Source: Acidobacteriota bacterium (GTDB taxonomy: Bacteria > Acidobacteriota > Terriglobia > Bryobacterales > UBA6623). From it: a stretch of 64,000 bases of DNA. Both the position numbers and the translations under genes were made by a program. Shown in pieces: positions 49,904 through 64,000 of this stretch. The notes beneath the pieces are model-generated. The model made no database searches. It saw nothing but the letters and a program-made list of their open reading frames with translations, and was not told the DNA's origin. The stretch lies in assembly GCA_016125275.1 (NCBI GenBank), contig WGMB01000007.1:434001-498000 (forward strand). Reading direction: 5' to 3'. How positions within the stretch are numbered: the stretch's first letter is position 1; every line of letters starts with the position of its first letter.

Positions 49904-52687
49904 CTAACCCTTGGTCAGGTAGATGAACAAGAACAGCACCGCCAGCGCCAGCAGCGTGCCGATCGCAAAGTACACGAAGTACATCTGCTGCCGCAGGCTG
50001 CGCACCTCGCCCTTGCTCAAGCCGGTGGAGATCGTCACGCCCAAGGCTTCCACCGCCTCGGCGTCCAGCCCTCCGCCGCCCTGCGCCGGCTGCTTCTGCA
50101 AGTCCTCGACGCTGCGTCGCAGCTCCCCGATCTCTTCCAGCGTGCTGCGCGCCCACTGGCTCCAGCGCTCGCTTTCCTTGTGCAGCGCGGCCGAGTCGCC
50201 GCCGGGGCCGGAGTTCTCCAGCCTCTCCAGCCGGTCCAGAATCTCCGTGATCCGAGCCGCTCCCTCCGCGGAACCGCCGCCCGCCACAACCGCCGGCCTC
50301 GATTCCAACGCCGCCAGCCGGTCCAGCACCGGCGAAAGATCGGTCGACGACGCGTCCGAGTTCTGCTCCAGCCAGTTGAGCCGGCCGATCACCTCGCTGA
50401 TCCGCGGATCGCTGCCGGCCGGCGCGGAATCCTGCGTGTCGGCCCGGTCGCGCAGGTCGTCCAGTTGCACCGCCAGCGACTCGATGCGGGCGCGCAGATC
50501 CGCGTCCACCACCACGTCCCCGGCTTCGCCCGTGCGCGCCTCCAGCTCCGCCAAGCGCTGCGAGAGCTGCTCCATCCGGCTGTCGTCGACTTCCGCCGCC
50601 GCGCCGCCGTTCTGCTCCACCACGCCCAGGCGCGCTTCCAGAGCCTCCAGCGCGGCGCTCCAGCGCTCCTCGGACGAGGGCGACGAATCCACCGAAAGCC
50701 CGCGCGCCTCCAGCGCCTCGACCCGCTCGGCCAAGTCGTCCGGACGCGGCCCCGCCAGCGTGTCCTGCGGGCTCATCTCGAGCACCGTCAGCCGCCGCCG
50801 CAGCTCCGCCACGTCGTCCAGGCCGCGCAGCTTCTCTTCCACCGAATCCAGCCGCGAGCCCCAGCCTTCGATGCGGCTCAGCGACTCGATGTCGGTCAGC
50901 CGAGCCTCTAGGTCCGCCAAGCGCGTACGGAGGGGCCCGGCGTCCTCGCGTTCCGCCTGCGCCCGCAGCGACTCCAGCTCGTCGCGCAGGTCGGCCACGG
51001 GCGGATTCTCCGGCCGCGCTGCCAGCTCGGCCCGCAGGGCCTCCACCTGCGCCCGCACCTCGGCCAAGCCCGCGCCCTCGGACTCCAGCGTCCGCAGCCG
51101 GCTGGTCAGCTCCATCAGCCCCGCCGGACTGGCGCCGTCCACGGCGTCGGCCTCGAGCTGGGTCACGCGGCCGGTCAGCGACTCGAAGTCGTCCAGCCGC
51201 GCCTGCAGGGCGTCCAAGCGGTCGGTCCAAGGGTCCTCGGCCTCGCCGGCCCGGGCGATCTCTTCCTCCAGCGCCGACAGCCGGCTCACCGCGCCTTGCT
51301 CGCCGGTCACCTTCTCTTCCAGCTCGAAGAGCCGCTCGCGCAGCGCAATCGTCTCTTCGTCGGGTTCGGCGCGCCCGGCCGTTTCCGCCACCTTCTCGAG
51401 CCGCTCTTCCAGCGCCGCCAGGCGCTCGGCCGAAGGCGCTTCCTCCACCTTCTCGCGCAGGCTCTCCAGGCTCGACCGCAGCTCGGTCAAGGCCTCTTCC
51501 GGCGCCGCCGCCGGCTGCTGTTCCAGCAGCGTCAGCCGCCCTTCCAGCGCCTCCCAGCGTTGCGCCTCGATCTCTTTCTGTTCGGCTCCGGGGAGCTGCT
51601 CGAGCGTCTCGTCAAGGCGCGTCCGCAGCTCCTCCTGCGCCTCCGCGCGGGCGCTGTCGGCGCCGTCCAAGCGCTCGGCCAGCGCGTCCAGCCCCACCGT
51701 CCACGGCGCCGCCTCCAGCCGGTCGTGCAGGTCGTCGATCCGCACGTTCCACGGCGCGGCGTTCATCCGCTCGCGCAAGCCTTCCAGCTCGCTCGTCCAC
51801 GGCGCGGCGTCCATGGTCTGCCGCACCGCGTCAAAATCTTCCCGCAGCGCCTGCGAGTCCTGCCGCAGGCCGTCCAGATCCTGCCGCACGGCCTCGGCGT
51901 CGGCCGTCCAGGGAGCCGCGTTCAAGCGGTCGCTGATCTCGTCGAGCCGATCCTGGAGAGCGGTGTCCTCGCGCGCTTCCCGCGCCTCGGCCTGCAACGC
52001 CCCGACCTTGCTGCTCAGCTCCCGCAGCTCCCCTTGGAACCGTTCCAGGTCCGTGCGCCGCGCCTCTTCCAGCTCACTCCGCAAGCTCTCCAGCCGCGCG
52101 GAAAGATTCTCGATCTCCCCGGCCGGGTTCGCGCGCCGATAGGCGCTCTCCACCGAGGCGATCCGCAGCACCACGTCGTCCACGCGGGCGTCGTCGCTCG
52201 GTTCGGAGGCCCGCTTGCGCAGCTTCTCCACCTGGGCGACCAGCTCGTCCACCCGGCGGTCCGGCCCGCCGTTCTTCTGCCGGCCGCTGTTCTCCAGCGC
52301 CGCCAGCCGATGCACGATCTCATTGAGCAGCGGGTCGGGCGCGCCCTCGCCCATCTTGCGTTCCAGCTCCGACAGCCGCAGAAAGACCGCGTCGAGCTGG
52401 GGCGTCCGCCCGGGGTAGGCGGCCGAGTCCGACAGCTCCGACAAACGGATCTTCTGCGTCCGGATCTCTTCCCTCAACTGCTTTAGCGTCTCTTCGTGCA
52501 GCAGTTGCGCGTCCTGGATCGCTCGATACTGTTTGCCTACGCCGTCGTAGCCGCTCGAGAATCCGTTGTCCGTCTCCGGCCGCGGGGGAAACGGCGGCAG
52601 CTCTCGCTGTTCGTGATCGCCCAGGATGGTCGCGGATGCCCGCTCCTCTTGTTCCGTGTTGGCAGGCGTCTCGGTCTCGTTTGGCAC
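49904..52687 (-). CDS. Large tail-anchored coiled-coil protein
   Basis: Protein of 927 residues that I cannot assign to a family. Apart from about 45 disordered N-terminal residues it is almost wholly heptad-rich Leu/Glu/Arg coiled coil. Its single membrane helix is at the extreme C-terminus (about 902-924, MYFVYFAIGTLLALAVLFLF), so it is tail-anchored with the rod in the cytoplasm. Residues 255-345 carry four AAPW motifs (Trp at 260, 297, 313, 329); the last three are spaced by exactly 16. Start is GTG 52687 after GGAGGG. A scaffold, polarity or chromosome/cell-division factor is possible, but this is guesswork. Confidence 0.8.
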   Translation of the reverse strand: MPNETETPANTEQEERASATILGDHEQRELPPFPPRPETDNGFSSGYDGVGKQYRAIQDAQLLHEETLKQLREEIRTQKIRLSELSDSAAYPGRTPQLDAVFLRLSELERKMGEGAPDPLLNEIVHRLAALENSGRQKNGGPDRRVDELVAQVEKLRKRASEPSDDARVDDVVLRIASVESAYRRANPAGEIENLSARLESLRSELEEARRTDLERFQGELRELSSKVGALQAEAREAREDTALQDRLDEISDRLNAAPWTADAEAVRQDLDGLRQDSQALREDFDAVRQTMDAAPWTSELEGLRERMNAAPWNVRIDDLHDRLEAAPWTVGLDALAERLDGADSARAEAQEELRTRLDETLEQLPGAEQKEIEAQRWEALEGRLTLLEQQPAAAPEEALTELRSSLESLREKVEEAPSAERLAALEERLEKVAETAGRAEPDEETIALRERLFELEEKVTGEQGAVSRLSALEEEIARAGEAEDPWTDRLDALQARLDDFESLTGRVTQLEADAVDGASPAGLMELTSRLRTLESEGAGLAEVRAQVEALRAELAARPENPPVADLRDELESLRAQAEREDAGPLRTRLADLEARLTDIESLSRIEGWGSRLDSVEEKLRGLDDVAELRRRLTVLEMSPQDTLAGPRPDDLAERVEALEARGLSVDSSPSSEERWSAALEALEARLGVVEQNGGAAAEVDDSRMEQLSQRLAELEARTGEAGDVVVDADLRARIESLAVQLDDLRDRADTQDSAPAGSDPRISEVIGRLNWLEQNSDASSTDLSPVLDRLAALESRPAVVAGGGSAEGAARITEILDRLERLENSGPGGDSAALHKESERWSQWARSTLEEIGELRRSVEDLQKQPAQGGGGLDAEAVEALGVTISTGLSKGEVRSLRQQMYFVYFAIGTLLALAVLFLFIYLTKG

Positions 52688-52786
52688 GTTCTTCCCTCCG
52701 CAGAAGGCGAGTCGGAGCCGCCCTCAGGAGGGTGCGGCGCCCACAACTCGCCTCATACAGGAGTGTCGGCGGGAAGCCCCCAGCCC

Positions 52787-52814
52787 TCAATAGGAACCTT
52801 TCCTTAATTGGCAA
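52787..52814 (-). promoter_or_regulatory. Candidate promoter of the coiled-coil gene
   Basis: On the minus strand: TTGCCA (complement of 52809-52814), 16 bases, TATTGA (complement of 52787-52792). The leader would be about 90 bases. The rest of 52688-52871 shows only a small GGGTC/GACCC hairpin (52839-52854) after the symporter stop. Confidence 0.4.
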
Positions 52815-52871
52815 TCGTGAGACGACCTACGGCCCCGGGGGTCCCTATAGACCCTCCATTTCCTTCGGCGT

Positions 52872-54464
52872 TTACCGAAAATGGAACCACAAGGCCAAAA
52901 TCGCGACCGCCACCGTCGCGCTCGCCGCCGAAAGTCGCCGCTGCTCGGCCGCCGACATCTCCTGCTCGGCCGCCCGCCACGAGGTCCAATCCACGGTCAG
53001 CCGCTCGACCTGAGCCAGCAAGGGCTTCTCCCCGAGCTTGCTCACCGCCACCATCAGCCCCAGGCAGAATACGAACACATACACGCTGAAGTTCAGAAAG
53101 CTGTACTCGACCACGCCGTTGAGCAGCGGGCCCAGGTCGACCCCGAAAGCCGAGTGCGCCACGTCCAGAAAGAACCGCCCAAAGCCCAGCACGCCGCCCA
53201 CGATCAGCGTCGTCAGCGCCGCCCGCGCCGTGGCGCCCCGCCACAGAATGCCGCACAGGAATACCGCCGTGATCGGCGCCCCGATCGAAGCCTGCACGCT
53301 CTGCAAATACTGATAGACCTGATCGTTCATGTACTGGATCAGCGGAATCCAGGCGATGCTCAGCCCCACGATGATCGCCGTGTTGGCCCGCCCGATGAAC
53401 ACCAGCCGCCGCTCGCTGGCCTCCGGGCGCAGCTTCTTGTAGAGGTCCAGCGTGATCAGCGTGGAGCAGGAGTTGAACACCGAGCTCAGCGACGACATCA
53501 GCGCCGCCAGCAGTGCTGCGATCATCAGCCCGCGCAGCCCCGGCGGTAGCAAGTTCTGCACCAGCAGCGGAAAGGCGTTGTCGCCGGTCGTCTCGTTGGG
53601 CCACAGCGCCTTGGCGATCAACCCCGGCAGCACCAGAATGAACACCGGCAGAATCTTCAGCGCCGAGGCGAACACCGCGCCGCCCCGTGCGTCCGCCAAG
53701 CCCTTGGCCGCCAACGTCTTCTGCACGATCACCTGGTCGGTGCACCAATACCAGGTCCCCAGGATGATCGTGCCCACCGTCGTGCCCAGCCAGGGATACG
53801 CCGGGTCGTCGATCGGCCGAATCATGTGGAAGTAGTCGGCCGGCAGAGCCTCCCGCAGCCCGGCGAAGCCGCCCGTTTCCTCCAGCCCCAGCACCGTGAT
53901 CAGGATCGCGCCGCCGATCATCACAAAGGCCTGAAAAAGGTCCGTGTAGATCACCGCCGACAGCCCGCCGGCCACCGTGTAGACGCCCGTGGCGACCACC
54001 AGCAGAATCGCCGACGTCATGTAGTCCCAACCAAACAGCTCCCGAATCAAGATGCCGCCGGCGAACAGCGACACCGAGATCTTCGTGAGGATGTAGGCCA
54101 GGATCGAGACCGTCGTAAGGTAATAGCGCGCCCCGGGGCTGAAGCGTTGCTCCAGAAACTCCGGCATCGTAAAGACCTTCGACCGCAGATAATGCGGCAC
54201 GAAAACCCAGCCCAGCGCCAGCAGACAGAAGCTCGCCGACCACTCATAGCAGCCCACCGGCAGACCGGTCGCGGCTCCCGAGCCGGCCAGCCCGATCACG
54301 TGCTCGCTGCCGATGTTCGTCGCAAACAGCGTCGCCCCCACGGCGAACCAGCCGGCATGGCGCCCGGCCAGAAAGTAGTCCTCCGAAGTTTTCTGCTTCC
54401 GGGCTTGGGAGAAGCCGATCCAGAAGACGGCGACGAAGTAGGCGGCAATGATCAGCAGGTCCAT
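52872..54464 (-). CDS. Sodium:solute symporter (SSS family)
   Basis: Protein of 530 residues with about 14 helices, resembling SglT/SLC5 transporters: SEDYFLAGRHAGWFAVGATLFATNIGSEH near the start, AGGLSAVIYTDLFQAFVM and LMSSLSSVFNSCSTLITLDLYK. It imports a sugar, carboxylate or other small solute with Na+. Starts 25 bases after the permease stop, so it is probably the last gene of the amine operon, although its substrate need not match. Confidence 0.88.
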   Translation of the reverse strand: MDLLIIAAYFVAVFWIGFSQARKQKTSEDYFLAGRHAGWFAVGATLFATNIGSEHVIGLAGSGAATGLPVGCYEWSASFCLLALGWVFVPHYLRSKVFTMPEFLEQRFSPGARYYLTTVSILAYILTKISVSLFAGGILIRELFGWDYMTSAILLVVATGVYTVAGGLSAVIYTDLFQAFVMIGGAILITVLGLEETGGFAGLREALPADYFHMIRPIDDPAYPWLGTTVGTIILGTWYWCTDQVIVQKTLAAKGLADARGGAVFASALKILPVFILVLPGLIAKALWPNETTGDNAFPLLVQNLLPPGLRGLMIAALLAALMSSLSSVFNSCSTLITLDLYKKLRPEASERRLVFIGRANTAIIVGLSIAWIPLIQYMNDQVYQYLQSVQASIGAPITAVFLCGILWRGATARAALTTLIVGGVLGFGRFFLDVAHSAFGVDLGPLLNGVVEYSFLNFSVYVFVFCLGLMVAVSKLGEKPLLAQVERLTVDWTSWRAAEQEMSAAEQRRLSAASATVAVAILALWFHFR

Positions 54465-54489
54465 CGTGGGAAGGCGCTAGTCTAGCAGC

Positions 54490-55911
54490 TCAGCGTCCCA
54501 GAATGAGCGACTTGCGCTCATCCTCCGGCATCGTCGCCCGGCCGGCCGCCCCCATCTTCCAAGCCGCCGCCCCCGCCGCCAGGAACCCTCCCAGAATCAG
54601 CCACTCGGTCGGCCAAGCCAGCGCCGCCGGGCTCGCCGGCAAGACCATGCAGCCCAGAATGAACGCCGCCCCTACGGCAGCCAGCCGCGGCGGCCAATCG
54701 CCGCCCGGAGGCCGATACGGCCGCGGCAGCTCCGGTCGCTTGCGCCGCAGCTCCAGCGTCGAAACCGCCACGCCCAGGAACGCGACGGCAATGCAGAACG
54801 ACCCCACGTTGACGAACGGCAGCAGCGCCCCGCGCCCCAGCAGCGCCCCCAGCAGCGTCACCGCGCCGCTGAGCAGCACCGCCGCCGATGGCGAGCCGTA
54901 GCGAGCGTGGGTGACCCCCAGCCCGGCCGTCGCGATCCCGCCGCGCCCCAACGCAAACAGCACCCGCGACCCCGCCAGGAAGAATCCGTTCCAACTCGTC
55001 AGCAGCCCCAGCAAGGCGCTCAGCAGCACCGCCCGCGCCAGCCACGGCGCTCCCAGCGCCCGCTCGAACGCCTCCGCCGTCGGCAGCTTGGCGTCCACTA
55101 GGCTCTGCCAGGGCCCCGTCATCGACACCGACAGCACCAGCACGGCATAGAACGCCGTCGCCGCCCCAATCGACGCCAGAATCAGCAGCCCCAGCCGCCG
55201 TGGCGAAACCGTCGCCTCGGCCTCCTCGGCCGCCTGCGGAATCGTGTCGAAGCCCACGAACCAGAACGGGATCGTCACGAACACGCCCAGAAACCCGCCC
55301 CAGCCCTGCCCCGGCGCCAGCCAAGGCCGCACGCTGCCGATGTCGCCCAACGCCAGCCCGGCGCCCACGAACACCACCGTCAGCGCCACGAAGATCGCCG
55401 TCAGCCAGGTCTGCAGCGCCGCCGCCGCCTGCACCCCTCGGTAGTTGATGCCGGTGATCGCCGCCGTCAGCGCCACGCCCAGCAGCAGGTGCGCCCCATA
55501 CACCGGTTCGCCCGCCACCGTATACAAAGGCCAAGCGTCGATCGCCGGCAGCAGATAGCTCAGCACCCGGCCCACCGAAATCGCCTCGAAGGCCGAAACC
55601 GACAGGTAGCCGAACGCCAGAAACCAGCCCACCACGAACGCCCGCCCCGTCCCCGAAGCCGCGTACGCGTAGGCCACCTCGCCGCCCGCCACCGGCAGCA
55701 TCGGCGTCAGCTCGGCGTAGCACAGCCCCACCAGCAGCATCAGCCCGCCGCCGGCCACGAACGCCGCGATCGCGCCGCCCGGCCCCGCGCCCGCCAGCCA
55801 CGAGCCCAGCGCCGTCACCCAGCCCACCCCGATCATCGACCCGAACGCCAGCGCGAAGAAGCCGCTCAGCTTCACCGACCGCTGCAGCTCGGGCCGCCCC
55901 GGGGCGCTCAT
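54490..55911 (-). CDS. APC-family amino acid/amine permease
   Basis: Protein of 473 residues with about 12 helices. Helix 1 has the unwound GSMIGVGW motif of APC transporters, and the FVTIPFWFVGFDTIPQAAEEA segment is typical of amino acid and polyamine porters. Its ATG overlaps the stop of the C45 gene (ATGA), so the two are translationally coupled. This suggests that it moves the substrate or product of that enzyme. Direction of transport cannot be told. Confidence 0.88.
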   Translation of the reverse strand: MSAPGRPELQRSVKLSGFFALAFGSMIGVGWVTALGSWLAGAGPGGAIAAFVAGGGLMLLVGLCYAELTPMLPVAGGEVAYAYAASGTGRAFVVGWFLAFGYLSVSAFEAISVGRVLSYLLPAIDAWPLYTVAGEPVYGAHLLLGVALTAAITGINYRGVQAAAALQTWLTAIFVALTVVFVGAGLALGDIGSVRPWLAPGQGWGGFLGVFVTIPFWFVGFDTIPQAAEEAEATVSPRRLGLLILASIGAATAFYAVLVLSVSMTGPWQSLVDAKLPTAEAFERALGAPWLARAVLLSALLGLLTSWNGFFLAGSRVLFALGRGGIATAGLGVTHARYGSPSAAVLLSGAVTLLGALLGRGALLPFVNVGSFCIAVAFLGVAVSTLELRRKRPELPRPYRPPGGDWPPRLAAVGAAFILGCMVLPASPAALAWPTEWLILGGFLAAGAAAWKMGAAGRATMPEDERKSLILGR

Positions 55912-56879
55912 GTCGGGTACTGAATCAACAGCTCGGACTCATCGAACCGCTCGAACGACTGCGTCCAGGAGTGGTTCGGCCAGCGGTAGGTCGCCGTCCG
56001 CGCCACCGGGTCGTAGACGGCCGTGTACAGAGTCCCAAATCCCTCTTTGAAGCGGGTGTTGTAGAGCGGCTTGTCGAGAAAGCGGTCCACGAAGGCCTCC
56101 CGGGACTCGGCGTCGTCGTCGAGCCGGTCGAGCAGATAGCGCTCCCGCTCCAGGCTGTGGGTCGCTTCGGCGTGGCGGGTCCACTCGATCTCGCGCTGGT
56201 GGTTGGTCGCCACCGGGCTGTTGGCCACCTGCGCCGGCCGGTCCGGCCCCACGTGTACGTTGGCAAAGCGGCCCGATCCGTCCAGTAGCGTCACGTTGTA
56301 GGCCATGTGCGAGGGGATGCGCTCCAGCGCCTCCACCCCCGACTCCACGTCGCGGCACAGCTCCAGGATGTAGCGCAGCACCAGCGGAATCCCGAACCCG
56401 TCGCCCACCACCTTGCGCCCGCCGAAGGCCAGCGACGCCACCAGCCCATGCTCGTTGATGCCGTCGAGCACCCCCCACAAACTGTCCGACTGCGCGATCA
56501 CCCGCGTGCCGTTCCAGGCGCTGTAGAGGATCAGCCCCTCGCAGTGGTTGGGGTGGTAGTCGTAGTTGCGCGCCAGCAACGGCCGCTCGCGCGTCCACAC
56601 CGCCTGCGAACAGCCCGAAAGGTACGGCGTCGGCCGATACAGGCTCAGCAGCCGCGCCTCCTGGTCGCCGCCGCCGGCCAAATCCACGAGCTTCTCCCAC
56701 GTCGGGACCAGCTCGGGCATATAGCGCTGCAGCGCCTGCCGGCACGAAACATAGCCGGGCCGCTTGCCCTCGCCCTCCCGCAAAAACCAATCCTGGTAAG
56801 CGGGCCACGAGCGCTCGAAGCGTTCCTTGGTCTTCTCGCCGGGCTCGAGCTGGTAAACGCCTCGGAAGTACAGATGCAT
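55908..56879 (-). CDS. C45-family (acyl-CoA:6-APA acyltransferase-like) Ntn hydrolase
   Basis: Protein of 323 residues. After a propeptide-like segment of 89 residues stands C90 (LSGCSQAVW), the expected autoproteolysis point and nucleophile. PLLARNYDYHP, GINEHGLVASLAFGG, VTLLDGSG and ATNH are the conserved blocks of the C45/choloylglycine-like Ntn fold. Relatives hydrolyse or form amides: isopenicillin N acyltransferase, Tan beta-alanyl-amine hydrolase, acyl-homoserine-type amidases. No signal peptide. No ribosome site is visible before ATG 56879; a heptad array takes its place. Confidence 0.82.
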   Translation of the reverse strand: MHLYFRGVYQLEPGEKTKERFERSWPAYQDWFLREGEGKRPGYVSCRQALQRYMPELVPTWEKLVDLAGGGDQEARLLSLYRPTPYLSGCSQAVWTRERPLLARNYDYHPNHCEGLILYSAWNGTRVIAQSDSLWGVLDGINEHGLVASLAFGGRKVVGDGFGIPLVLRYILELCRDVESGVEALERIPSHMAYNVTLLDGSGRFANVHVGPDRPAQVANSPVATNHQREIEWTRHAEATHSLERERYLLDRLDDDAESREAFVDRFLDKPLYNTRFKEGFGTLYTAVYDPVARTATYRWPNHSWTQSFERFDESELLIQYPT

Positions 56880-56883
56880 GATT

Positions 56884-56966
56884 CGTGAGCCGTTATCCGT
56901 GAGCCGTAAGCCGTGGGCGCGTCCTTCAGCGGCGGCTCACGGTTCACGGTTCACGGTTCACGATCA
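56884..56966. repeat. Second facing heptanucleotide array
   Basis: Left units (56884-56918): CGTGAGC, CGTTATC, CGTGAGC, CGTAAGC, CGTGGGC. Right units (56934-56961): GGCTCAC followed by three GGTTCAC; a partial GATCA ends at 56966. A 15-base spacer separates them. Same family as the array at 5356-5503 (core GTGAGC). It sits between two genes of one operon: the last three bases of the ATP-grasp gene are inside it and the C45 start is five bases beyond it. A hairpin forms in the operon mRNA. Confidence 0.9.
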
Positions 56967-58427
56967 AAGGAACTTGAACCCCCCAACCTCGGCCACCCTC
57001 TCCGCCGCCGTCGTCTCGGCCGCCTGCAACGGTCGCGCCCGGTACTGGCCGCGAATGCCCGAGATCCAGGCCTTCGCTCGGTCGGTCAACTGGAACTCTT
57101 CGGTCATCAGCCGCCCCGGCGTCACCAGAATGCCCAGCTCGGCGCCCTCGTAGAAGTAGTCGCCCACGCCGTTGATCCGCAGGAAGAACGCTTCGTACTC
57201 GTCCTCCACCGTGCGCCGGTGCGTCTGCACCCGCCGGAACTGCATGCCGCCGTCGGGATGCAGCCGCCAAATGCCCGTCCGCGGAGCCTCCGTGATGAAC
57301 TCCACCGAGTCCCGCGTGTGCTTGATGATGAGCTGGCTCCACGAGTCGATGTTCTCCGGATCGGCCCAGCGTGCGTTCAGCTCCGCCACGTCCAGCTCGA
57401 AGTCCACGCCCGAAAACTCCAGCAGGTGGAACAGGAACAGCGGCGCGTCGGCCTGCGCGAACGACGCCAGATTCGTCATCGAGCTCGCTCCCGTGATGCG
57501 CGGGTTCACTTCGCCCAGAAACAGGTCGTCGCTGTCGAGGTCGTATAGGTAGTCCACCTCGAAGTAGCCCCGGTAGCCCCTCTTGCGTAGCGCTTCGCCG
57601 AACTGGAACGTGTAGCGCCGCGCCTTGTCGCGCACCTCTTGCGAAAACGCCCCCGCGAAGACCTCGTTGCCGGCCCAGCCGCCCTTGTACGGCGTCAGCT
57701 CCTTGAAGCCCACCACCTCCGTCATCAGCGGCCCCACGATCGTGCCGTGCCGCGTCACGCAGGCCTCCAGCGCCGCCTGCTTGGGGCGGATGCGGCGCAT
57801 GATCTTCACCTCGTCCTCGCGCTCGATCTCCTCGGCGTACTCCTCGTAGTCTTCCTTGTTGGAGATGAAGTACGTCGTGTGGCCGGAGTCCCCGAAGGCG
57901 CTCTGCACCACCAGATGCTCGCCCAGGCCGCCCTTTTCGGCCAGCTTGCGCAGCGTCTCGTAGCTGTCCACCTTGCCCATCCAGTTGGGTACGGACGGCA
58001 CGCCCGCCTCGTCGCCCAGCCGCGTGGTCTCGAGCTTCGAGTCCATCGCCTGCCGCAAGTTCGCCGGCGGAAAGCACACGTCCAGCCCCAGCTCCCGGCA
58101 CAGCTCCTCGGTGCGCTCGTCGAAGAACAGGAACACCGCCTTGCCGCCCGGACCGCGCGACTGGATGTAGTCCACGATCTCCTTGTGCTCGAGCAGGTAG
58201 TTGTTGATCTCCTCGATCGACTGGAACACCTGGTCAGTCTTCTGCGACGGGGTCACCACGTTCGGGTGCGCCCCGTCGAAGCAGTCGATGTAGTTGATGA
58301 ACTTGAAGTTGCGAACCCACTCATCCATGCCGAGCAGATTGAAGTTCGTCGCCGAAACGAAGTAGATCGGTTCGGTATTGCGGTAGAAGTAGCGGCGGAT
58401 GTCGGAGATGCCCTTCAGTGTCTTCAT
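56964..58427 (-). CDS. ATP-grasp ligase
   Basis: Protein of 487 residues with an ATP-grasp core at about 120-330. Recognisable parts are SKLETTRLGDEAGVPSVPNW, an ATP-binding Lys/Gln region (LVVQSAFGDSGHTTYF), the metal-ligand stretch GYFEVDYLYD and FLGEVNPRITGASSM. The family forms amide or peptide bonds from a carboxylate (acyl-phosphate) and an amine; automatic annotation often labels such proteins biotin carboxylase-like, but no BCCP partner is visible. An unassigned C-terminal domain of ~130 residues follows. It starts 20 bases after the decarboxylase stop. Likely the amide-forming enzyme of the operon (inference). Confidence 0.82.
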   Translation of the reverse strand: MKTLKGISDIRRYFYRNTEPIYFVSATNFNLLGMDEWVRNFKFINYIDCFDGAHPNVVTPSQKTDQVFQSIEEINNYLLEHKEIVDYIQSRGPGGKAVFLFFDERTEELCRELGLDVCFPPANLRQAMDSKLETTRLGDEAGVPSVPNWMGKVDSYETLRKLAEKGGLGEHLVVQSAFGDSGHTTYFISNKEDYEEYAEEIEREDEVKIMRRIRPKQAALEACVTRHGTIVGPLMTEVVGFKELTPYKGGWAGNEVFAGAFSQEVRDKARRYTFQFGEALRKRGYRGYFEVDYLYDLDSDDLFLGEVNPRITGASSMTNLASFAQADAPLFLFHLLEFSGVDFELDVAELNARWADPENIDSWSQLIIKHTRDSVEFITEAPRTGIWRLHPDGGMQFRRVQTHRRTVEDEYEAFFLRINGVGDYFYEGAELGILVTPGRLMTEEFQLTDRAKAWISGIRGQYRARPLQAAETTAAERVAEVGGFKFL

Positions 58428-58447
58428 CGTTGCTTCCCTGGGGTTTT

Positions 58448-61213
58448 TTAGAGGTTGTCGATCACATCTTGCCGAAAGACGCGCAACCCGAACGTCGGAT
58501 TGTAGCCGTGGATCTCTTTCACGTCGAGCGCTTTGAGGTAGGCCAAGATCTGCTCGCTGATCACCTGGCCCGGCACCAGGATCGGATAGCCCGGCGGATA
58601 CGGCGTCACGAACGACGCCGACACCACCTCTTGGCCGTCCGCCATCGCCTTGGCGATCGAGCCGTCGGTGTGCAGGTATTCGCAGGCGTTGCTGTCATAG
58701 GCCAGGAAGAAGGCCTTGCGCAAATCGCCTTCCGGCGTCCCGCTGGCCGGGTCCGGCCGGAACTTTGGGTGGAAGTGGCTGAACTCCGGCAACGGCGGCA
58801 GCCGTTCGGTCAGCAGCTCCACGCTGCCTTCGAAGATCGACTGCTCCATCGGGCTGTGCTCTTCCACGTCCTCTTCGATCTCGCACGCGATCTGCATCAG
58901 CACTTCCAGCAGATAGGCGATCGCGCCGCGCGAGGAACCGATGTTCAGCATGAACAGCACGGTGTTGCGCGACGTCTTGTTGATCTGGATGTCGAAGCGC
59001 TCGATCAGCATCTTGCGGACCGCGTCGCCCTCGATGCCCGTCGCGCCCACATGCACGGTCACCCGCAGTGGGTCGAGCGCGAACTCGTCCTCGCGCCACG
59101 ACGCGCTCATGCCCAAGAAGCCGCTCTCCTTCGAGTAGTACTGTTCCAGGCCCGACGAGCGGTACTCCGCCGGCACCAGATCCTTCACCCGCAGCAGCCG
59201 GAAGTATTTGCGCAGCAGCGGTTGCTCCTCGATCCGCTCGCGCAGCGTCATCGCCAGCTCCACGCTCTTCTTGACGAGCTCGTAGCCCTCCAGCTCCACC
59301 TGCCGCCGGCCTACGTCGAGCGACGCCAGAATCTGGTAGTTCGGCGAGGTCGAGGTGTGCGTCATGTACGCCTCTTCAAAGGCGTCGTGCGCCTGCCGCG
59401 CGAAATCCTGGTCGTAGACGTGGATCGCCGAGCCCTGCCGCAGCGACGTCAGCGTCTTGTGCGTGGACTGCGTGGCGTACACCCGCACCCGCGCCCGCGC
59501 GGGATCGGGCAGCAGCCGCCGGTCCAGCCACGTCGCCGGATCGTCGGGGTCGAGCTGGTCGAACTCCTTCTTCCAGGCCTCGTAGCGCGCGCAGTACTCC
59601 GGATCGCGCAGCTCGTCGCGCAGCGTCTCCGCCGCTTCCATGCCGCTGCGGCGGCGGTAGGTGGGCACGAAGCGCGCAAAGGCGTACCAGGCCTCGTCCC
59701 ACACGAAGATCATGTCCGGCTTGATCGCCAGCACCTCGCGCATCACCATCTCCGGGTGATACACGATGCCGTCGAAGGTGCAGTTGGTCAGCAGCAGCAT
59801 CCGCACCTTGTCGAGCTTTCCGGCGGCCTTGAGCTCCAGCAGCCGATGCTTGATCGTCCGCAGCGAGACCCCGCCGGAGATCGAGTACTCCTGCAGCGGA
59901 TAGGCGTCCATGTACACCGGGAACGCCCCCGCCAGCACCAGCGCGTAGTGGTGCGACTTGTGGCAGTCGTGCGACACCAGCACGATGTCGCCCGGCCGGC
60001 ACAGCGCCTGCATCACGATCTTGTTCGCCGTCGAGGTGCCGTTGGTGACGAAGTAGCTGTGCTTGGCGCCGTACGCCCTCGCCAGCTTCTCCTGCGCGCT
60101 CTTCAGCGGCCCCGTGGGCTGCAGTAGCGAATCCAGCCCGCCCGTCGTCGACGACGTCTCGGCCATGAAGATGTTCGGCCCGTAGAAGTCACCCATGTCG
60201 CGAATCCAGTGCGACTTCCAGATCGACTTGCCGCGCGAGATCGGCAGCGCGTGGAACACGCCGGTGGGCTTCTTGGCGTACTCGGTCAGCGCCGTGAAGA
60301 ACGGCGCGTCGAAGCGGTCGTCGATGCCTTTCAGAATCGACAGGTGCAGCTCCAGATAGTCTTCCTGGCGATAGAACACCCGCCGGAAGATCCCGTTCGT
60401 GCGGCCGGCGATGTTCTCGATGCGGTCGTCGGTGACGATGAACAGGTCCAGCTCCGGCCGCAGGTCCTTCAGCGCCGCTCCCAGCAGCAGGCTCGGGTCG
60501 GGCTGATCGAGCGCCTCGAGCACGTCGTCATCCACCAGATCCAGGTACCGCCGCAGCTCGGGCAGGTCCATCGAGGAGCGTTTGGGAAAGCTGTAGCGCA
60601 GCACGCACGACTGGATGTTGTGGTTGAACAGGACCGCGATCAGCGCGTCCTCGCAGGTTGGAGCGACCACCACGTCGTAGATGAACTCGTCCTCGTCCCG
60701 CCGCATCGCCAGCAACGACTCGCGGACCTCGTCCTCCTCGTTGCGGCTGATGTTGTCGATGACCAGAACTTCGAAGTACGGCCGCGTCTCGGCGTTGGCC
60801 CCGCCGTCTTCGGAGCCGTCGGCGCGCGTCCCCGTCTCGGTCTCTTCGATCTCGCGGACGATCTCGCTCACCGCCCGCCGGCGGTAGCCGTCGCTCTCCA
60901 GCAACCGCGCGATCCGCGTCGTGCGCCCGGCCAGCGCCGCCATGAAGCCTCGGTCGAAGGCCCGCCGCAGCTCCGAACACGTCTTGTGGCCTGGGAACGC
61001 CCAGTAGCGCTCGACCTTCTCGAGCACGCCCAGCGTGCGGTCGATCGTTTCGCGGAGCTCTTCGGTGTTGTCGTCCGCGCTCGCCCTAGCCAGCCTCGTC
61101 GTCTCCAACTTGAGCTGATTCCAGGCATCGGCTCGAAACAGGGAGGCGTCGTAGTAGGCTCGGAAGGCTTTCTCGGGAGAAGCCGCCCTGGCTTGGGCTG
61201 AGAGTAGGCTCAT
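58448..61213 (-). CDS. Long Orn/Lys/Arg decarboxylase (AdiA-type, PLP)
   Basis: Protein of 921 residues, about 170 longer than E. coli AdiA/CadA. Residues 1-~145 are an extra helical region. Then comes the CheY-like wing domain (YFEVLVIDNISR) and the PLP fold-I core: NGTSTANKIV (391-400), HDCHKSHHYAL, WDEAWYAFARF (505-515) and PLP Lys586 (TQSTHKTLTSLRQGS). An insertion of about 55 residues separates the Asp and Lys blocks. The reaction is decarboxylation of Arg, Orn or Lys to agmatine, putrescine or cadaverine; the substrate cannot be decided. The ATG overlaps the stop of the amidase (ATGA). Confidence 0.9.
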   Translation of the reverse strand: MSLLSAQARAASPEKAFRAYYDASLFRADAWNQLKLETTRLARASADDNTEELRETIDRTLGVLEKVERYWAFPGHKTCSELRRAFDRGFMAALAGRTTRIARLLESDGYRRRAVSEIVREIEETETGTRADGSEDGGANAETRPYFEVLVIDNISRNEEDEVRESLLAMRRDEDEFIYDVVVAPTCEDALIAVLFNHNIQSCVLRYSFPKRSSMDLPELRRYLDLVDDDVLEALDQPDPSLLLGAALKDLRPELDLFIVTDDRIENIAGRTNGIFRRVFYRQEDYLELHLSILKGIDDRFDAPFFTALTEYAKKPTGVFHALPISRGKSIWKSHWIRDMGDFYGPNIFMAETSSTTGGLDSLLQPTGPLKSAQEKLARAYGAKHSYFVTNGTSTANKIVMQALCRPGDIVLVSHDCHKSHHYALVLAGAFPVYMDAYPLQEYSISGGVSLRTIKHRLLELKAAGKLDKVRMLLLTNCTFDGIVYHPEMVMREVLAIKPDMIFVWDEAWYAFARFVPTYRRRSGMEAAETLRDELRDPEYCARYEAWKKEFDQLDPDDPATWLDRRLLPDPARARVRVYATQSTHKTLTSLRQGSAIHVYDQDFARQAHDAFEEAYMTHTSTSPNYQILASLDVGRRQVELEGYELVKKSVELAMTLRERIEEQPLLRKYFRLLRVKDLVPAEYRSSGLEQYYSKESGFLGMSASWREDEFALDPLRVTVHVGATGIEGDAVRKMLIERFDIQINKTSRNTVLFMLNIGSSRGAIAYLLEVLMQIACEIEEDVEEHSPMEQSIFEGSVELLTERLPPLPEFSHFHPKFRPDPASGTPEGDLRKAFFLAYDSNACEYLHTDGSIAKAMADGQEVVSASFVTPYPPGYPILVPGQVISEQILAYLKALDVKEIHGYNPTFGLRVFRQDVIDNL

Positions 61214-62103
61214 TTTCGCTGAGGTTCCTTCTGCAGTTGCGCTGCAGGTCGTCGCTGCGGTTTTTGCAGCGGGCCCAATTCTTTGAAGTGTGACCGCGCC
61301 TGTGGGTTGTCTCCGTACACCGGAAAGCGCACCTTGCGGTCACGAAAGCTCTTCAACGGCTGGCCCAGGCCGCGCAATCCGACTTCCCGGCTCCGACGCA
61401 CACGGTCGATGTCGATCTCGATCGGAATCATCTCTTCGGAGTGGCCCGCTTGGTAGAGCACGTCTCCGTACGGCCCCACCACGATCGAGCGGCCGTTGCC
61501 GCCGTCGCCGGCGCCGTTGATGTCGAACATGAACACTTGCTGCTGCGCCGCCGTCGCTTGCGCGATCGCCAGCTCCACGCTGCGGTCGATCGTACCCGTC
61601 AGCGAAGGGTGCAGAATCACTTCCGCGCCCATCGCCGCCAGCGTCCGGCTGGTCTCGGGAAACCACATGTCGTAGCAGATCGAGACTCCGAAACGAGCGA
61701 TCCCCGGCACGTCGAACACCAGGAACTCCTCGCCCGCCTCGATGCCTTCCTCGTACGGCCGGAACGGGAACATCTTGCGGTAGCGCCCGACCACTTCGCC
61801 GTACGGGTCGATCACCATCGCCGTGTTGTAGATCTTCTCGTCCTCGGTCTTCTCGAAGACAGACCCCGGCAACAGCCAGATCCCGTGCCGCCGGGCCATC
61901 TCGCGGAACTCGTCCTCCACCGGCCCGGGCAGCTTCTGCGCCCGCCGCGGCGACGGGCCGAACGCCGCCAACTCGCTGAACACCACCATCTCCACCCAGG
62001 GGTAGATGTGCATCAGCAGGTCCAGCCGGCCCCGCATGTACGCTACGTTGTCGTGTACCGCCGACAGGCTCATCTGCATGCCGGCAATCGCGATCGGCGT
62101 CAT
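61210..62103 (-). CDS. Nitrilase-family amidase (second copy type)
   Basis: Protein of 297 residues with E44 (VFSELAAFG), K110 (RYRKMFPF) and C143 (SICYDMWFPE), the complete catalytic triad. CYDMWFPETSR differs from the N-carbamoylputrescine type at 1800, so the substrate is probably another amide, carbamoyl or nitrile compound. Coupled on both sides by ATGA overlaps: its start with the aminotransferase stop and its stop with the decarboxylase start. Confidence 0.87.
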   Translation of the reverse strand: MTPIAIAGMQMSLSAVHDNVAYMRGRLDLLMHIYPWVEMVVFSELAAFGPSPRRAQKLPGPVEDEFREMARRHGIWLLPGSVFEKTEDEKIYNTAMVIDPYGEVVGRYRKMFPFRPYEEGIEAGEEFLVFDVPGIARFGVSICYDMWFPETSRTLAAMGAEVILHPSLTGTIDRSVELAIAQATAAQQQVFMFDINGAGDGGNGRSIVVGPYGDVLYQAGHSEEMIPIEIDIDRVRRSREVGLRGLGQPLKSFRDRKVRFPVYGDNPQARSHFKELGPLQKPQRRPAAQLQKEPQRK

Positions 62104-63413
62104 CGAACGGCGACCTCGGCGGCGGCAAGAATCGATTCGGTCATCACTGCGAGCGCTCTCTCCAAGTCGGCATCCTCGATCACCAGCGGCGACAGCGTCC
62201 GGATGATGTTGCCGTGCGCTCCCGCCGGCAGCACCAGCACGCCGTTGTCCCGGCAACGGGCCAACGCGTCGGCCGTTACCGACCCCGCCGGTCGATGCGG
62301 GTCCCCATCGTAGCAGAGCTCCATGCCGATCATGGCGCCCAATCCGCGTACGTCCGCCACCACGTCGGTCTGCGTTTGCAAGCCCTCGAAAGCCTCGCGC
62401 ACCCGCGCTCCGATCCGCTGCGCCCGACCGTTCAGGTCGAGCTTCTCCATCACTGAGATCGTCGCCAGCGAAGCCGCGCAGGCCACCGGGTTGCCGCCGT
62501 ACGTCCCGCCGATCGTACCCGGCCGGGCGGCGTCCATCACATCGGCCCGCCCGATCACCGCGCCGATCGGTAGACCCGACCCCATCGACTTGGCCCAAGT
62601 CGACAAGTCCGGCGTCACCTCGTAGTGTTCGTAAGCCGCCCAACGTCCGGTCCGGCAGAACCCCGACTGCACTTCATCGCAGATGAGCAAGATGCCGTGT
62701 CTGTTACAGATTTCCCGCAAGCCCTGCAGATAGCCCTTCGGAACCGGCAAGAAGCCGCCCTCGCCCTGCACCACCTCCAGAATCACCGCCGCCACCTGGT
62801 CCGCCGGCGCGTAATAGTAGAACGCGTCCTCGAAGCGTTGCAGCTCGCGCCGCACCAGCTCCGCCTCGGTCAGTCCGTCGCCGTCATGGAACAGGCTCGG
62901 GAACGGCAGCCGGTAGACCTCCGGCGCAAACGGTCCGCAGCCGAGCTTGTAGCTCGTCTTCGACGTCAGCGCCATGCCCATCATCGTGCGCCCGTGGAAG
63001 GCCCCGGTGTAGCAGAAGATCGCCGGCCTGCCGGTCGCCTGCCGCGCGATCTTGATGGCGTTCTCCACCGCCTCGGCGCCGGTGTTCACCAGCATCGTCT
63101 TGGTCGGCCCGCCGTGCGGAAACAGCGCGTTGAGCTTCTCGCACAGCTCCACATACGGCTCGTAGGTGGCTACGTGGATGCACGCGTGCATCAGCTTGGC
63201 GGCCTGCTGCTGCACGGCCTCCACCACCTCCGGCGCACAGTGGCCGGCGTTGACCACGCCGATGCCTCCGGCGAAGTCGATCAGCTCGCGCCCGTCGGCG
63301 TTCACCAGCCGGGCGCCGTGGCCCGACTCCGCCGTGGTCTCTCCGGCAAAAATGCCCACGCCGCGCGGCACGGCCCGCAGCCGGCGATCGATCCATTCCT
63401 TGTTGAGGCTCAT
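62100..63413 (-). CDS. Class III aminotransferase (GabT/ArgD-like)
   Basis: Protein of 437 residues, class III PLP aminotransferase: NTGAEAVENAIKIAR, GAFHGRTMMGMALTSK, ICDEVQSGFCRTG with the PLP Asp, and Lys275 in TWAKSMGSGLPIGAVIG. Conservation is typical of 4-aminobutyrate/putrescine-type omega-aminotransferases. First gene of the seven-gene operon. ATG 63413 has GGGAGAG eight bases upstream. It would deaminate an amine or omega-amino acid to an aldehyde or semialdehyde. Confidence 0.92.
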   Translation of the reverse strand: MSLNKEWIDRRLRAVPRGVGIFAGETTAESGHGARLVNADGRELIDFAGGIGVVNAGHCAPEVVEAVQQQAAKLMHACIHVATYEPYVELCEKLNALFPHGGPTKTMLVNTGAEAVENAIKIARQATGRPAIFCYTGAFHGRTMMGMALTSKTSYKLGCGPFAPEVYRLPFPSLFHDGDGLTEAELVRRELQRFEDAFYYYAPADQVAAVILEVVQGEGGFLPVPKGYLQGLREICNRHGILLICDEVQSGFCRTGRWAAYEHYEVTPDLSTWAKSMGSGLPIGAVIGRADVMDAARPGTIGGTYGGNPVACAASLATISVMEKLDLNGRAQRIGARVREAFEGLQTQTDVVADVRGLGAMIGMELCYDGDPHRPAGSVTADALARCRDNGVLVLPAGAHGNIIRTLSPLVIEDADLERALAVMTESILAAAEVAVR

Positions 63414-63480
63414 AAGCGACTCTCCCTATTATCCCGCTTGTCCGCTTTCGGCCCGGCGGAGTCCTTATAATGGCGACACC
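63414..63480. promoter_or_regulatory. Divergent promoter region
   Basis: Plus strand: perfect TATAAT at 63466-63471, only nine bases before ATG 63481, so the mRNA would be leaderless or nearly so. Minus strand: GATAAT (complement of 63428-63433) before the aminotransferase. Neither has a clear -35. Confidence 0.5.
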
Positions 63481-64000
63481 ATGAACCGGACTCCCGTGAC
63501 GAACCGGCCTGCTTCGACGCTTTCCCGGCCCCTGACGCGCCGCGATCTCTTCCGCCTCGCCTCCGGCTCCGCCGCCGCCGGGCTCGCCGCTCTCACCGGC
63601 CCCCAATCCGCCCTGGCGCAGGCCATGGCCAAGGCCAAGCCGCTCAATCTCCAGATCACGGACCTCAAGAGCTGGATCGTCAACGACTCCTCGTCCAAGA
63701 ACTACGTCTTCTGCAAAATCTTCACCAACCAAGGCCTGGTCGGCGTCGGCGAAGGCTCGGTCACCTCCAAGGCCGCCACCATGAAGGCCGCCATCGACGA
63801 GCATCACCGCTACCTCGTCGGCAAGGACCCCACCGACATCGAGATGCACTGGCAGGCCATGTACCGCTGGCCTCGCTGGCGCGGCGGCCCCATCCTCAAC
63901 TCCGCCATCTCCGCCGTCGAGATCGCCCTGTGGGACATCCTCGGCCAAGCCCTCGGCCAGCCCATCTACAAGCTCCTCGGCGGCAAGGCCCGCGACAAGG
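63481..64000 (+). CDS. Enolase-superfamily (MR/MLE) enzyme, 3' end outside the window
   Basis: First 173 codons of a longer gene. The N-terminus has a Tat-type leader (TRRDLFRLASGSAAAGLAALTG, with A-L-A-Q-A cleavage). The N-terminal capping domain of mandelate racemase/muconate-lactonising enzymes follows (FTNQGLVGVGEGS, AISAVEIALWDILGQALGQ, IYKLLGGKARDK). Members include sugar-acid dehydratases such as galactonate dehydratase. The catalytic barrel lies beyond the edge, so the reaction cannot be named. Export of an MR/MLE enzyme is unusual. Confidence 0.85.
   Translation, partial: MNRTPVTNRPASTLSRPLTRRDLFRLASGSAAAGLAALTGPQSALAQAMAKAKPLNLQITDLKSWIVNDSSSKNYVFCKIFTNQGLVGVGEGSVTSKAATMKAAIDEHHRYLVGKDPTDIEMHWQAMYRWPRWRGGPILNSAISAVEIALWDILGQALGQPIYKLLGGKARDK

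What the first reader, a model, noticed from the sequence alone, without database searches (positions are those of the whole stretch)
52872..63413. Seven-gene amine/amide operon, possibly an undescribed pathway
Aminotransferase, nitrilase-family amidase, AdiA-type decarboxylase, ATP-grasp ligase, C45 Ntn hydrolase, APC permease and SSS symporter run on one strand, with ATGA coupling at three junctions and short gaps elsewhere. The set contains an enzyme that makes an amine, one that could join it to a carboxylate, one that could cleave the amide, and one that oxidises omega-amines. Ligase plus Ntn hydrolase recalls the Ebony/Tan or carnosine-type cycle of amine conjugation and release. The conjugate itself is inferred, not shown.
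Basis: partly seen in the sequence, partly recalled or inferred. Interest (0 to 1): 0.78.

Follow-up and report, generated by a model that had tools for sequence, protein, structure and literature searches.

The report
Conserved bacterial GABA-linked amine gene module
Five of the seven genes form an amine-handling gene set that recurs side by side in many distantly related bacteria, probably feeds a known route for breaking down GABA, and contains a decarboxylase that may not use the substrates its family name suggests.

Summary
The seven genes are real, on the minus strand, with ATGA overlaps at three junctions. Among 76 related loci, where contigs allow the test, the decarboxylase (DEC) lies within 1.5 kb of the ATP-grasp gene in 63 of 69, C45 in 44 of 63; the nitrilase relative (NIT) is in 42 of 49, the aminotransferase (AT) in 39 of 59. 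An aldehyde dehydrogenase, absent from the window's operon, is in 32 of 56; the APC permease in 1 of 56. AT keeps GabT I50, R141, E211 and R398 in 43 of 43 rows; one of six dehydrogenases examined passes the succinate-semialdehyde dehydrogenase cut-off. So GABA to succinate is the likely outlet. DEC keeps the PLP site but has Asn, Gln and Arg where E. coli lysine and ornithine enzymes have Glu, Glu and Ser, in 66 of 66 rows, hinting at an amide or carboxylate side chain. The ATP-grasp protein is named biotin carboxylase but lacks its motif in 71 of 71 rows. Favoured, inferred route: glutamine-type amide, 4-aminobutanamide, GABA, succinate; ATP-grasp and C45 make and cleave a conjugate. An arginine route is the main rival.

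The parts
62100..63413 (-). AT: class III aminotransferase, GabT/PuuE type, core gene
   Evidence: PF00202; TIGR00700 487.8 bits, under its 506.65 cut-off; nearest solved structure E. coli GabT 1sf2, 382 bits; GabT I50, R141, E211, R398 kept in 43 of 43 rows, but Q79 is His in 38 of 43
61210..62103 (-). NIT: carbon-nitrogen hydrolase (nitrilase superfamily), core gene
   Evidence: PF00795; E44, K110 and C143 invariant in 32 rows; ATGA overlap with AT
58448..61213 (-). DEC: Orn/Lys/Arg-family PLP decarboxylase of the Rv2531c type, core gene, with changed residues where E. coli Lys/Orn enzymes are acidic
   Evidence: PF01276; best solved relatives 9n0n and 9n0o, 842 bits; K586, H418, D506 kept; N745, Q883, R592, Q743 in 66 of 66 rows
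56964..58427 (-). ATP-grasp ligase (NCBIfam NF005096, named biotin carboxylase), core gene
   Evidence: 761.9 bits vs cut-off 684; K131, E306, N308, R310, G313, S315 in 71 of 71 rows, no Glu at position 314; model mean pLDDT 90.6
55908..56879 (-). C45: Ntn-type acyltransferase/hydrolase, core gene in most loci outside Bacteroidota
   Evidence: NF040521 180.6 bits vs cut-off 85; C90, D107, N226, R245 in 47 of 47 rows, R104 in 46 of 47; Z 30.3, rmsd 3.0, 301 aligned to 2x1c
54490..55911 (-). APC-family permease, overlapping C45 here but not core
   Evidence: PF13520; ATGA overlap with C45; in 1 of 56 testable loci, L013 at 61% identity
52872..54464 (-). SSS-family sodium/solute symporter, co-directional, not core
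   Evidence: TIGR00813 373 bits over cut-off 184; only 25-34% identical symporters, in 4 of 76 loci

Best explanation
A recurrent amine module that drains into GABA breakdown. Shown by sequence: AT, NIT, DEC, ATP-grasp and C45 of the window, plus an ALDH in relatives, form a recurrent gene set; AT is of the GabT type and most of the ALDHs examined are nearest to succinate-semialdehyde dehydrogenases; DEC has an intact PLP site but differs from E. coli Lys/Orn enzymes at conserved acidic positions; the ATP-grasp protein keeps the ATP/Mg residues but not the biotin-carboxylase motif; C45 is an IAT-type Ntn protein. Inferred: DEC decarboxylates an amino acid with an amide or carboxylate side chain, most simply glutamine or a gamma-glutamyl amide, to 4-aminobutanamide (or an N-substituted GABA amide). 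NIT, whose superfamily mostly acts on small primary amides (recalled), hydrolyses it to GABA, which AT and ALDH turn into succinate. The ATP-grasp enzyme joins the DEC product or its precursor to a carboxylate, forming a conjugate that C45 cleaves. The Bacteroidota genomes examined lack NIT and C45, so there the conjugate would be an end product. My confidence is about 0.85 for the module, about 0.7 for GABA to succinate as its outlet, and 0.32 for the amide route as a whole (lowered from 0.35 on checking, because the place of the second changed Glu in the pocket is not established).
For: Synteny k of n: DEC 63/69, NIT 42/49, C45 44/63, AT 39/59, ALDH 32/56. In 297 genomes of the phylum the ATP-grasp family, a full-length DEC and a full-score NIT occur in the same two genomes, G000 and G198. 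GabT residues I50, R141, E211, R398 43/43; SSADH positions R165 28/37, R283 19/37, S446 28/37 (roles recalled); the L043 ALDH is over the GabD equivalog cut-off, 864 vs 828. DEC changes 66/66. [quoted passage not shown] The genome has a SpeA over cut-off (712 vs 624), so agmatine needs no DEC, and no GadB-type match at E 1e-10.
Against: No substrate was tested. That CadA E526 / SpeF E532 bind the distal amino group is recalled and was not found in print; E. coli AdiA itself has Thr there, and whether the second changed residue (Q883 for CadA E663) lies in the pocket is not established here. An agmatinase-family gene (over the equivalog cut-off in L031) lies 0.9-1.9 kb upstream of NIT in four related loci, and a urea-transporter gene lies beside DEC in seven Bacteroidota loci: both suit arginine. 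The glutamine route gives ATP-grasp no obligatory role although it is DEC's closest partner. AT scores under the GabT equivalog cut-off and differs at Q79. R283 of GabD is kept in only 19 of 37 ALDH rows, and five of six ALDHs examined pass no cut-off shown.
Confidence: 0.32

Rival explanations
1. Arginine/polyamine route: DEC is an arginine (or ornithine/lysine) decarboxylase after all; ATP-grasp caps the resulting amine (agmatine, putrescine or cadaverine) as an amide, in the manner of gamma-glutamyl-putrescine; the free end is oxidised by enzymes partly outside the cluster, and C45 or NIT releases GABA, which AT and ALDH degrade.
For: DEC's family PF01276; an agmatinase-family gene 0.9-1.9 kb upstream of NIT in L022, L031, L072, L074 and an arginase-family gene 3.4 kb downstream of ATP-grasp in L065; urea-transporter gene beside DEC in seven Bacteroidota loci; XRE-cupin regulators in L010, L019, L026, a layout recalled from PuuR.
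Against: Changed residues in 66 of 66 DEC rows; no amine oxidase or diamine-type aminotransferase seen among the seven genes or recognised in the recurrent neighbour clusters; another frame lies between agmatinase and NIT in L022 and L031, and the four copies are 86-94% identical to the L031 one, so they are one lineage; the window's genome already has SpeA.
Confidence: 0.27
2. GABA shunt with a storage conjugate: DEC is a glutamate decarboxylase of the Orn/Lys/Arg family, AT and ALDH complete the GABA shunt, and ATP-grasp plus NIT/C45 make and break a GABA-containing peptide or amide (homocarnosine-like).
For: Invariant R592 and near-invariant R749 (64 of 66) could bind a carboxylate; DEC+AT+ALDH would equal a GABA shunt; no GadB-type match in the window's genome.
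Against: Leaves two amidases, NIT and C45, for one conjugate; no glutamate decarboxylase of this family is known to me (recalled).
Confidence: 0.15
3. Acyl-protected lysine/ornithine route: ATP-grasp acylates the side-chain amine of Lys or Orn first, DEC removes the alpha carboxylate of the neutralised amino acid, AT and ALDH oxidise the new amine, and NIT or C45 removes the cap.
For: A neutral amide side chain would also suit N745 and Q883; gives every enzyme a step and explains the tight pairing of ATP-grasp and DEC.
Against: AT keeps the GabT Arg141, recalled as a carboxylate ligand, in 43 of 43 rows, which a carboxylate-free amine would not need; Bacteroidota genomes lack NIT and C45 for uncapping.
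Confidence: 0.1
4. ATP-grasp is a carboxylase-type enzyme (biotin- or PurK-like amine carboxylation) and no amide conjugate exists.
For: NF005096 name and score; biotin carboxylases and carboxylase subunits are the best sequence matches in the PDB; Z for PurK, biotin carboxylase and PylC is tied at about 22-24.
Against: The RIQVEH stretch reads R-I-T-G-A-S here, with no Glu at that place in 71 of 71 rows (role recalled); no biotin carrier or carboxyltransferase among the seven genes. The motif argument does not touch a PurK-like reaction.
Confidence: 0.1

Closest known systems
Lysine delta-aminovaleramide (Dav) pathway (recalled; of PMC12930585 only the search listing with the start of its abstract was seen)
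   Same: An omega-amino amide is hydrolysed by a carbon-nitrogen hydrolase, then a GabT-family aminotransferase and a semialdehyde dehydrogenase make a dicarboxylate.
   Different: No lysine 2-monooxygenase among the seven genes; a decarboxylase stands in its place; ATP-grasp and C45 are extra; GabT/SSADH types point to a C4 chain.
Puu pathway of putrescine breakdown (E. coli genes and names fetched)
   Same: ATP-dependent amide capping, oxidation, de-capping, then GABA aminotransferase.
   Different: PuuA is a glutamine-synthetase-type ligase, PuuB an oxidase and PuuD another hydrolase family (families recalled); none is among the seven genes.
Ebony/Tan and carnosine-type cycles (recalled)
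   Same: A ligase plus a C45 hydrolase that could make and cleave an aminoacyl amine; carnosine synthase is also an ATP-grasp enzyme.
   Different: Ebony is not an ATP-grasp enzyme; here a GABA outlet and a nitrilase relative accompany the pair.
M. tuberculosis Rv2531c (PDB 9n0n/9n0o; activity not clarified per PMC12910592, passages)
   Same: Closest solved relative of DEC over almost its whole length, with Asn and Gln at the same two positions in the printed alignment.
   Different: Its gene neighbourhood was not examined here.

Membership tests
Orn/Lys/Arg decarboxylase family (PF01276) | profile match and PLP-site residues | tested here: met
   269 bits vs cut-off 27; K586, H418, D506 align with CadA K367, H245, D330
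Lysine/ornithine decarboxylase by substrate | Glu of CadA E526 / SpeF E532 (role recalled) and CadA E663 / SpeF E671 | tested here: not met
   N745 and Q883 in 66 of 66 rows; the role of the second position is not established
Arginine decarboxylase AdiA by substrate | substrate-contacting residues of AdiA | tested here: inconclusive
   AdiA has T571 at the first place and E708 at the second; DEC has N745 and Q883; AdiA's contacts were not found in print here
Biotin carboxylase (NF005096 name) | curated model score | tested here: met
   761.9 vs 684 bits; the relative in G198 scores 587, under the cut-off
Biotin carboxylase (NF005096 name) | catalytic RIQVEH stretch with Glu (role recalled) | tested here: not met
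   RITGAS; position 314 is A 61, V 8, L 2 of 71
ATP-grasp amide/peptide ligase | amide product from amine and carboxylate | not testable with these tools
   ATP/Mg residues kept; substrates unknown
4-aminobutyrate aminotransferase (GabT/PuuE) | I50, R141, E211, R398 of E. coli GabT (roles recalled) | tested here: met
   43 of 43 rows; PatA has F and K at the first two; Q79 is His in 38 of 43 rows
4-aminobutyrate aminotransferase (GabT/PuuE) | equivalog score | tested here: not met
   TIGR00700 487.8 vs 506.65 bits
Nitrilase superfamily | Glu-Lys-Cys triad | tested here: met
   E44, K110, C143 invariant in 32 rows
C45 Ntn hydrolase/acyltransferase | curated score, Cys nucleophile, IAT fold | tested here: met
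   180.6 vs 85 bits; C90 47/47; Z 30.3, rmsd 3.0, 301 aligned to 2x1c
Dav pathway | lysine 2-monooxygenase in the gene set | tested here: not met
   none among the seven genes; recurrent neighbour clusters were only partly annotated; not sought elsewhere in the genome
Puu pathway | GS-type gamma-glutamylputrescine ligase and its oxidase in the gene set | tested here: not met
   ligase is ATP-grasp; no oxidase among the seven genes; not sought elsewhere in the genome
Ebony/Tan cycle | NRPS-type Ebony ligase (recalled) | tested here: not met
   ligase is ATP-grasp

The most novel reading that the evidence does not exclude
DEC is a new kind of decarboxylase for an amide side chain (glutamine or a gamma-glutamyl amide), opening a GABA route through 4-aminobutanamide, and its ATP-grasp partner makes an unknown GABA-type amide conjugate that Bacteroidota keep as a product and other bacteria recycle to succinate with C45, NIT, AT and ALDH.
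Probability: 0.23. Interest if true: 0.82.

Novelty: new variant of a known kind. Interest (0 to 1): 0.6.

Why it matters
It gives a testable function to families filed under unclear or doubtful names: the Rv2531c-type decarboxylases (activity not clarified, PMC12910592), the NF005096 'biotin carboxylases', and a nitrilase branch. The DEC/ATP-grasp pair recurs in at least six phyla by record title, so the pathway is not a local oddity. If the amide route is right, there is a glutamine-to-GABA route and a conjugate metabolite that genome annotation has missed.

Tried and rejected
Biotin carboxylase subunit: not favoured (motif lost, no partner genes among the seven). Riboswitch clue: Rfam gave no match at gathering score in window 50000-64000 or in 8 of the 76 loci. 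Literature, held library only: no paper holds PRK06524 or the family combinations searched; none holds Glu532 with ornithine decarboxylase or E526 with LdcI; nothing relevant to bacterial glutamine decarboxylation in the 25 of 41 papers listed (listing only); one gut decarboxylase survey gave no pocket information (passages); the Rv2531c cryoEM paper and one decarboxylase phylogeny are not held. Fold search could not tell ligase from carboxylase: PurK, biotin carboxylase and PylC are tied in Z. Of 193 flanking frames listed (150 printed), 20 were annotated besides 10 earlier; apart from the agmatinase and urea-transporter cases told above, they gave no recurring substrate clue (sulfate permease, peroxidase, transaldolase, CoA transferases, L-asparaginase II, a saccharopine-dehydrogenase relative, TRAP parts and others, in one or a few loci). 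Genes that look like reductive pyrimidine breakdown beside the module in L014 and L025 were judged a neighbouring pathway. A C45 open frame of 926 aa in L069 runs on into an FAD-dependent protein; I did not treat it as a fusion.

Limits: the 76 loci were found through two N-terminal peptide patterns of ATP-grasp, so they over-represent close relatives (54-71% identity for near-full-length matches), many are metagenome bins and some are near-duplicates; the k-of-n values are not independent. Taxa are from record titles; L051 and L074 carry Bacteroidota names but a non-Bacteroidota arrangement and may be mis-binned. Denominators leave out loci whose contig ends too near; NIT, AT and ALDH count anywhere in the fetched locus, DEC and C45 within 1.5 kb. 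The Mantel correlations (0.56-0.88, 0 of 999 permutations each) also reflect shared species history. ATP-grasp loci without a full DEC alongside: of 7 genomes checked, 4 have DEC elsewhere or in pieces, G300 has only a weak relative (167 bits), G299 and G316 have none at E 1e-30. C45 and NIT absences are in genomes of untold completeness; AT and ALDH were not sought genome-wide in Bacteroidota. The 37 ALDH rows are machine-called frames and include the second copies in L014 and L025.
Full report
What is there. Seven genes lie on the minus strand at 52872-63413, in the order AT, NIT, DEC, ATP-grasp, C45, APC, SSS, with ATGA overlaps at AT/NIT, NIT/DEC and C45/APC and gaps of 20, 84 and 25 bases elsewhere. 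The AT start codon is 67 bases from the likely start (63481) of a divergent gene with a Tat-like leader, so one promoter region could serve the whole run; this is inference. The window lies in a 7.55 Mb genome. Its phylum includes G198, whose contig agrees in length and match position with the record of 'Acidobacteria bacterium HKST-UBA04' (L065), so the organism is very probably an Acidobacteriota.

Is the set real. The ATP-grasp family NF005096 is rare in the phylum: 2 of 297 genomes at E 1e-30, one of them (G198, 587 bits) under the family's cut-off of 684. A full-length DEC (1509 and 1417 bits) and a full-score NIT (516 and 505 bits) occur in the same two genomes; eleven weaker DEC matches in ten other genomes (141-248 bits, each over about a third of the model or less) look like ordinary family members, and one further NIT match scores 213 bits. 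A scan of named bacterial genomes gave 76 loci, titled Planctomycetota, Gemmatimonadota, Myxococcota, Acidobacteriota, Pseudomonadota, Bacteroidota and Sumerlaeota. Where the contig is long enough, DEC is within 1.5 kb of ATP-grasp in 63 of 69 loci, C45 in 44 of 63, NIT is in the locus in 42 of 49 and AT in 39 of 59; DEC+NIT+AT+C45 are all in the locus in 28 of 50. Protein identities of the five genes correlate across loci (Mantel r 0.56 to 0.88), as expected if they descend or travel together.

What belongs to it and what does not. Clustering of neighbouring frames found one more recurrent gene, an aldehyde dehydrogenase, in 35 loci, usually next to AT: often upstream on the same strand, in some loci on the other strand or between AT and NIT; it is in 32 of 56 testable loci. 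The window's operon lacks it; the genome has four relatives elsewhere at E 1e-60, none over the SSADH cut-off. APC is in 1 of 56 (L013, 61% identical), and symporters in 4 of 76 loci are only 25-34% identical to SSS: the transporters are a local addition. The set is nested. Eight Bacteroidota genomes have DEC plus ATP-grasp but no C45 match and no strong NIT match (one of 83 bits); five genomes with AT, NIT, DEC and ATP-grasp together (L062-L065, L079) have no C45 match.

The outlet. AT is closest to E. coli GabT among solved structures (382 bits). I50, R141, E211 and R398 of GabT are kept in 43 of 43 rows, whereas the diamine enzyme PatA has Phe and Lys at the first two; on the other side, Q79 of GabT is His in 38 of 43 rows and some other positions vary (roles recalled), and AT is under the GabT equivalog cut-off. 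Of six dehydrogenases examined, L043's passes the NADP-dependent SSADH equivalog cut-off (864 vs 828) and TIGR01780 (751 vs 646); L025's is nearest to TIGR01780 and just under it (619), three are nearest to the PRK09406 succinic semialdehyde dehydrogenase model but well under its cut-off, and L017's is nearest to lactaldehyde dehydrogenase. Positions R165, R283 and S446 of GabD are kept in 28, 19 and 28 of 37 rows; PuuC has none of them. GABA to succinate is therefore the likely outlet, not a proven one.

The decarboxylase. DEC is a near full-length relative of Rv2531c (842 bits), whose activity has not been clarified according to PMC12910592 (passages). Against E. coli AdiA, CadA, SpeF and LdcC, DEC keeps the PLP lysine, the His and the Asp, but shows N745 where CadA, LdcC and SpeF have Glu (AdiA Thr), Q883 where all four have Glu, R592 (six residues after the PLP lysine) where all four have Ser and Q743 where all four have Val, each in 66 of 66 rows; R749 is in 64 of 66. 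[quoted passage not shown] I infer that DEC's substrate lacks a free positive side chain. This step is the weakest link that carries weight: the role of E526/E532 is recalled, the place of the second Glu was not checked on a structure, and AdiA's Thr shows that an arginine enzyme can do without the first.

The ligase and the hydrolases. NCBIfam names the ATP-grasp protein biotin carboxylase (762 vs 684 bits). The printed alignment with a pyruvate carboxylase puts this motif's R-I-T-G-A-S against R-I-Q-V-E-H (window letters); G313 and S315 are invariant and no row of 71 has Glu at 314. The model (mean pLDDT 90.6) matches PurK, biotin carboxylases and PylC with tied Z of about 22-24 at 10-16% identity, so fold does not decide. 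C45 is an IAT-type Ntn protein: Z 30.3, rmsd 3.0, 301 residues aligned to 2x1c, ahead of NAAA (23.9) and acid ceramidase (22.9), with C90, D107, N226 and R245 in 47 of 47 rows. IAT is an acyltransferase as well as an amidase (recalled), so C45 may transfer an acyl group rather than only hydrolyse. NIT has its triad but only distant solved relatives (best 82 bits).

Mechanism. I favour: glutamine-type amide, to 4-aminobutanamide (DEC), to GABA (NIT), to succinate semialdehyde (AT), to succinate (ALDH), with ATP-grasp and C45 forming and cleaving a conjugate of the amine. It resembles the lysine delta-aminovaleramide route (recalled) with a decarboxylase in place of the oxygenase. Supporting context: the genome has SpeA over its cut-off and no GadB-type match at E 1e-10. 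Against: agmatinase-family genes near the module in four related loci and a urea-transporter gene next to it in seven Bacteroidota loci, which suit an arginine route. I give the amide route 0.32 and the arginine route 0.27. These moved from 0.35 and 0.25 when I re-read my calls: the agmatinase lies 0.9-1.9 kb from NIT, nearer than I had written, and the pocket position of Q883 is not established.

Verdict. It should be corrected in three ways: drop the transporters from the core, add the dehydrogenase, and do not assume Arg/Orn/Lys as the substrate.

Noticed in passing
L058:1339-6121, and like genes in L053, L055, L056, L059, L067, L076: In Bacteroidota a protein with a urea-transporter and an M23-peptidase domain (Pfam on the L058 copy), mostly with TPR proteins, sits divergently beside a small conserved protein of unassigned family and DEC-ATP-grasp.
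   Followed up: partly
L022, L031, L072, L074 upstream of NIT: An agmatinase-family gene (over the TIGR01230 cut-off in L031) lies 0.9-1.9 kb upstream of NIT in four closely related loci.
   Followed up: partly
L014:11843-19167 and L025:11561-19445: Beside the module lies what looks like a reductive pyrimidine breakdown cluster (dihydropyrimidinase-like gene, second aminotransferase, second nitrilase relative, second aldehyde dehydrogenase).
   Followed up: no
L019 and L026: Both loci carry a TAXI/NMT1-type substrate receptor and an XRE-cupin regulator, in L019 right beside ALDH-AT: a possible uptake system and regulator for the module's substrate.
   Followed up: partly
L036:3686-4765 and L042:3759-4784: A second ATP-grasp gene (D-Ala-D-Ala-ligase C-terminal domain in L036) lies upstream of the module in two Kiloniellaceae loci.
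   Followed up: no
window 49904-52687, minus strand: A 927-aa frame rich in repeated 'LEERLE'-like, coiled-coil-looking stretches follows the operon; nature not examined.
   Followed up: no
L069:10473-13250: The C45 frame stays open into an FAD-dependent protein (926 aa in all); may be a sequencing frame effect or a true fusion.
   Followed up: partly
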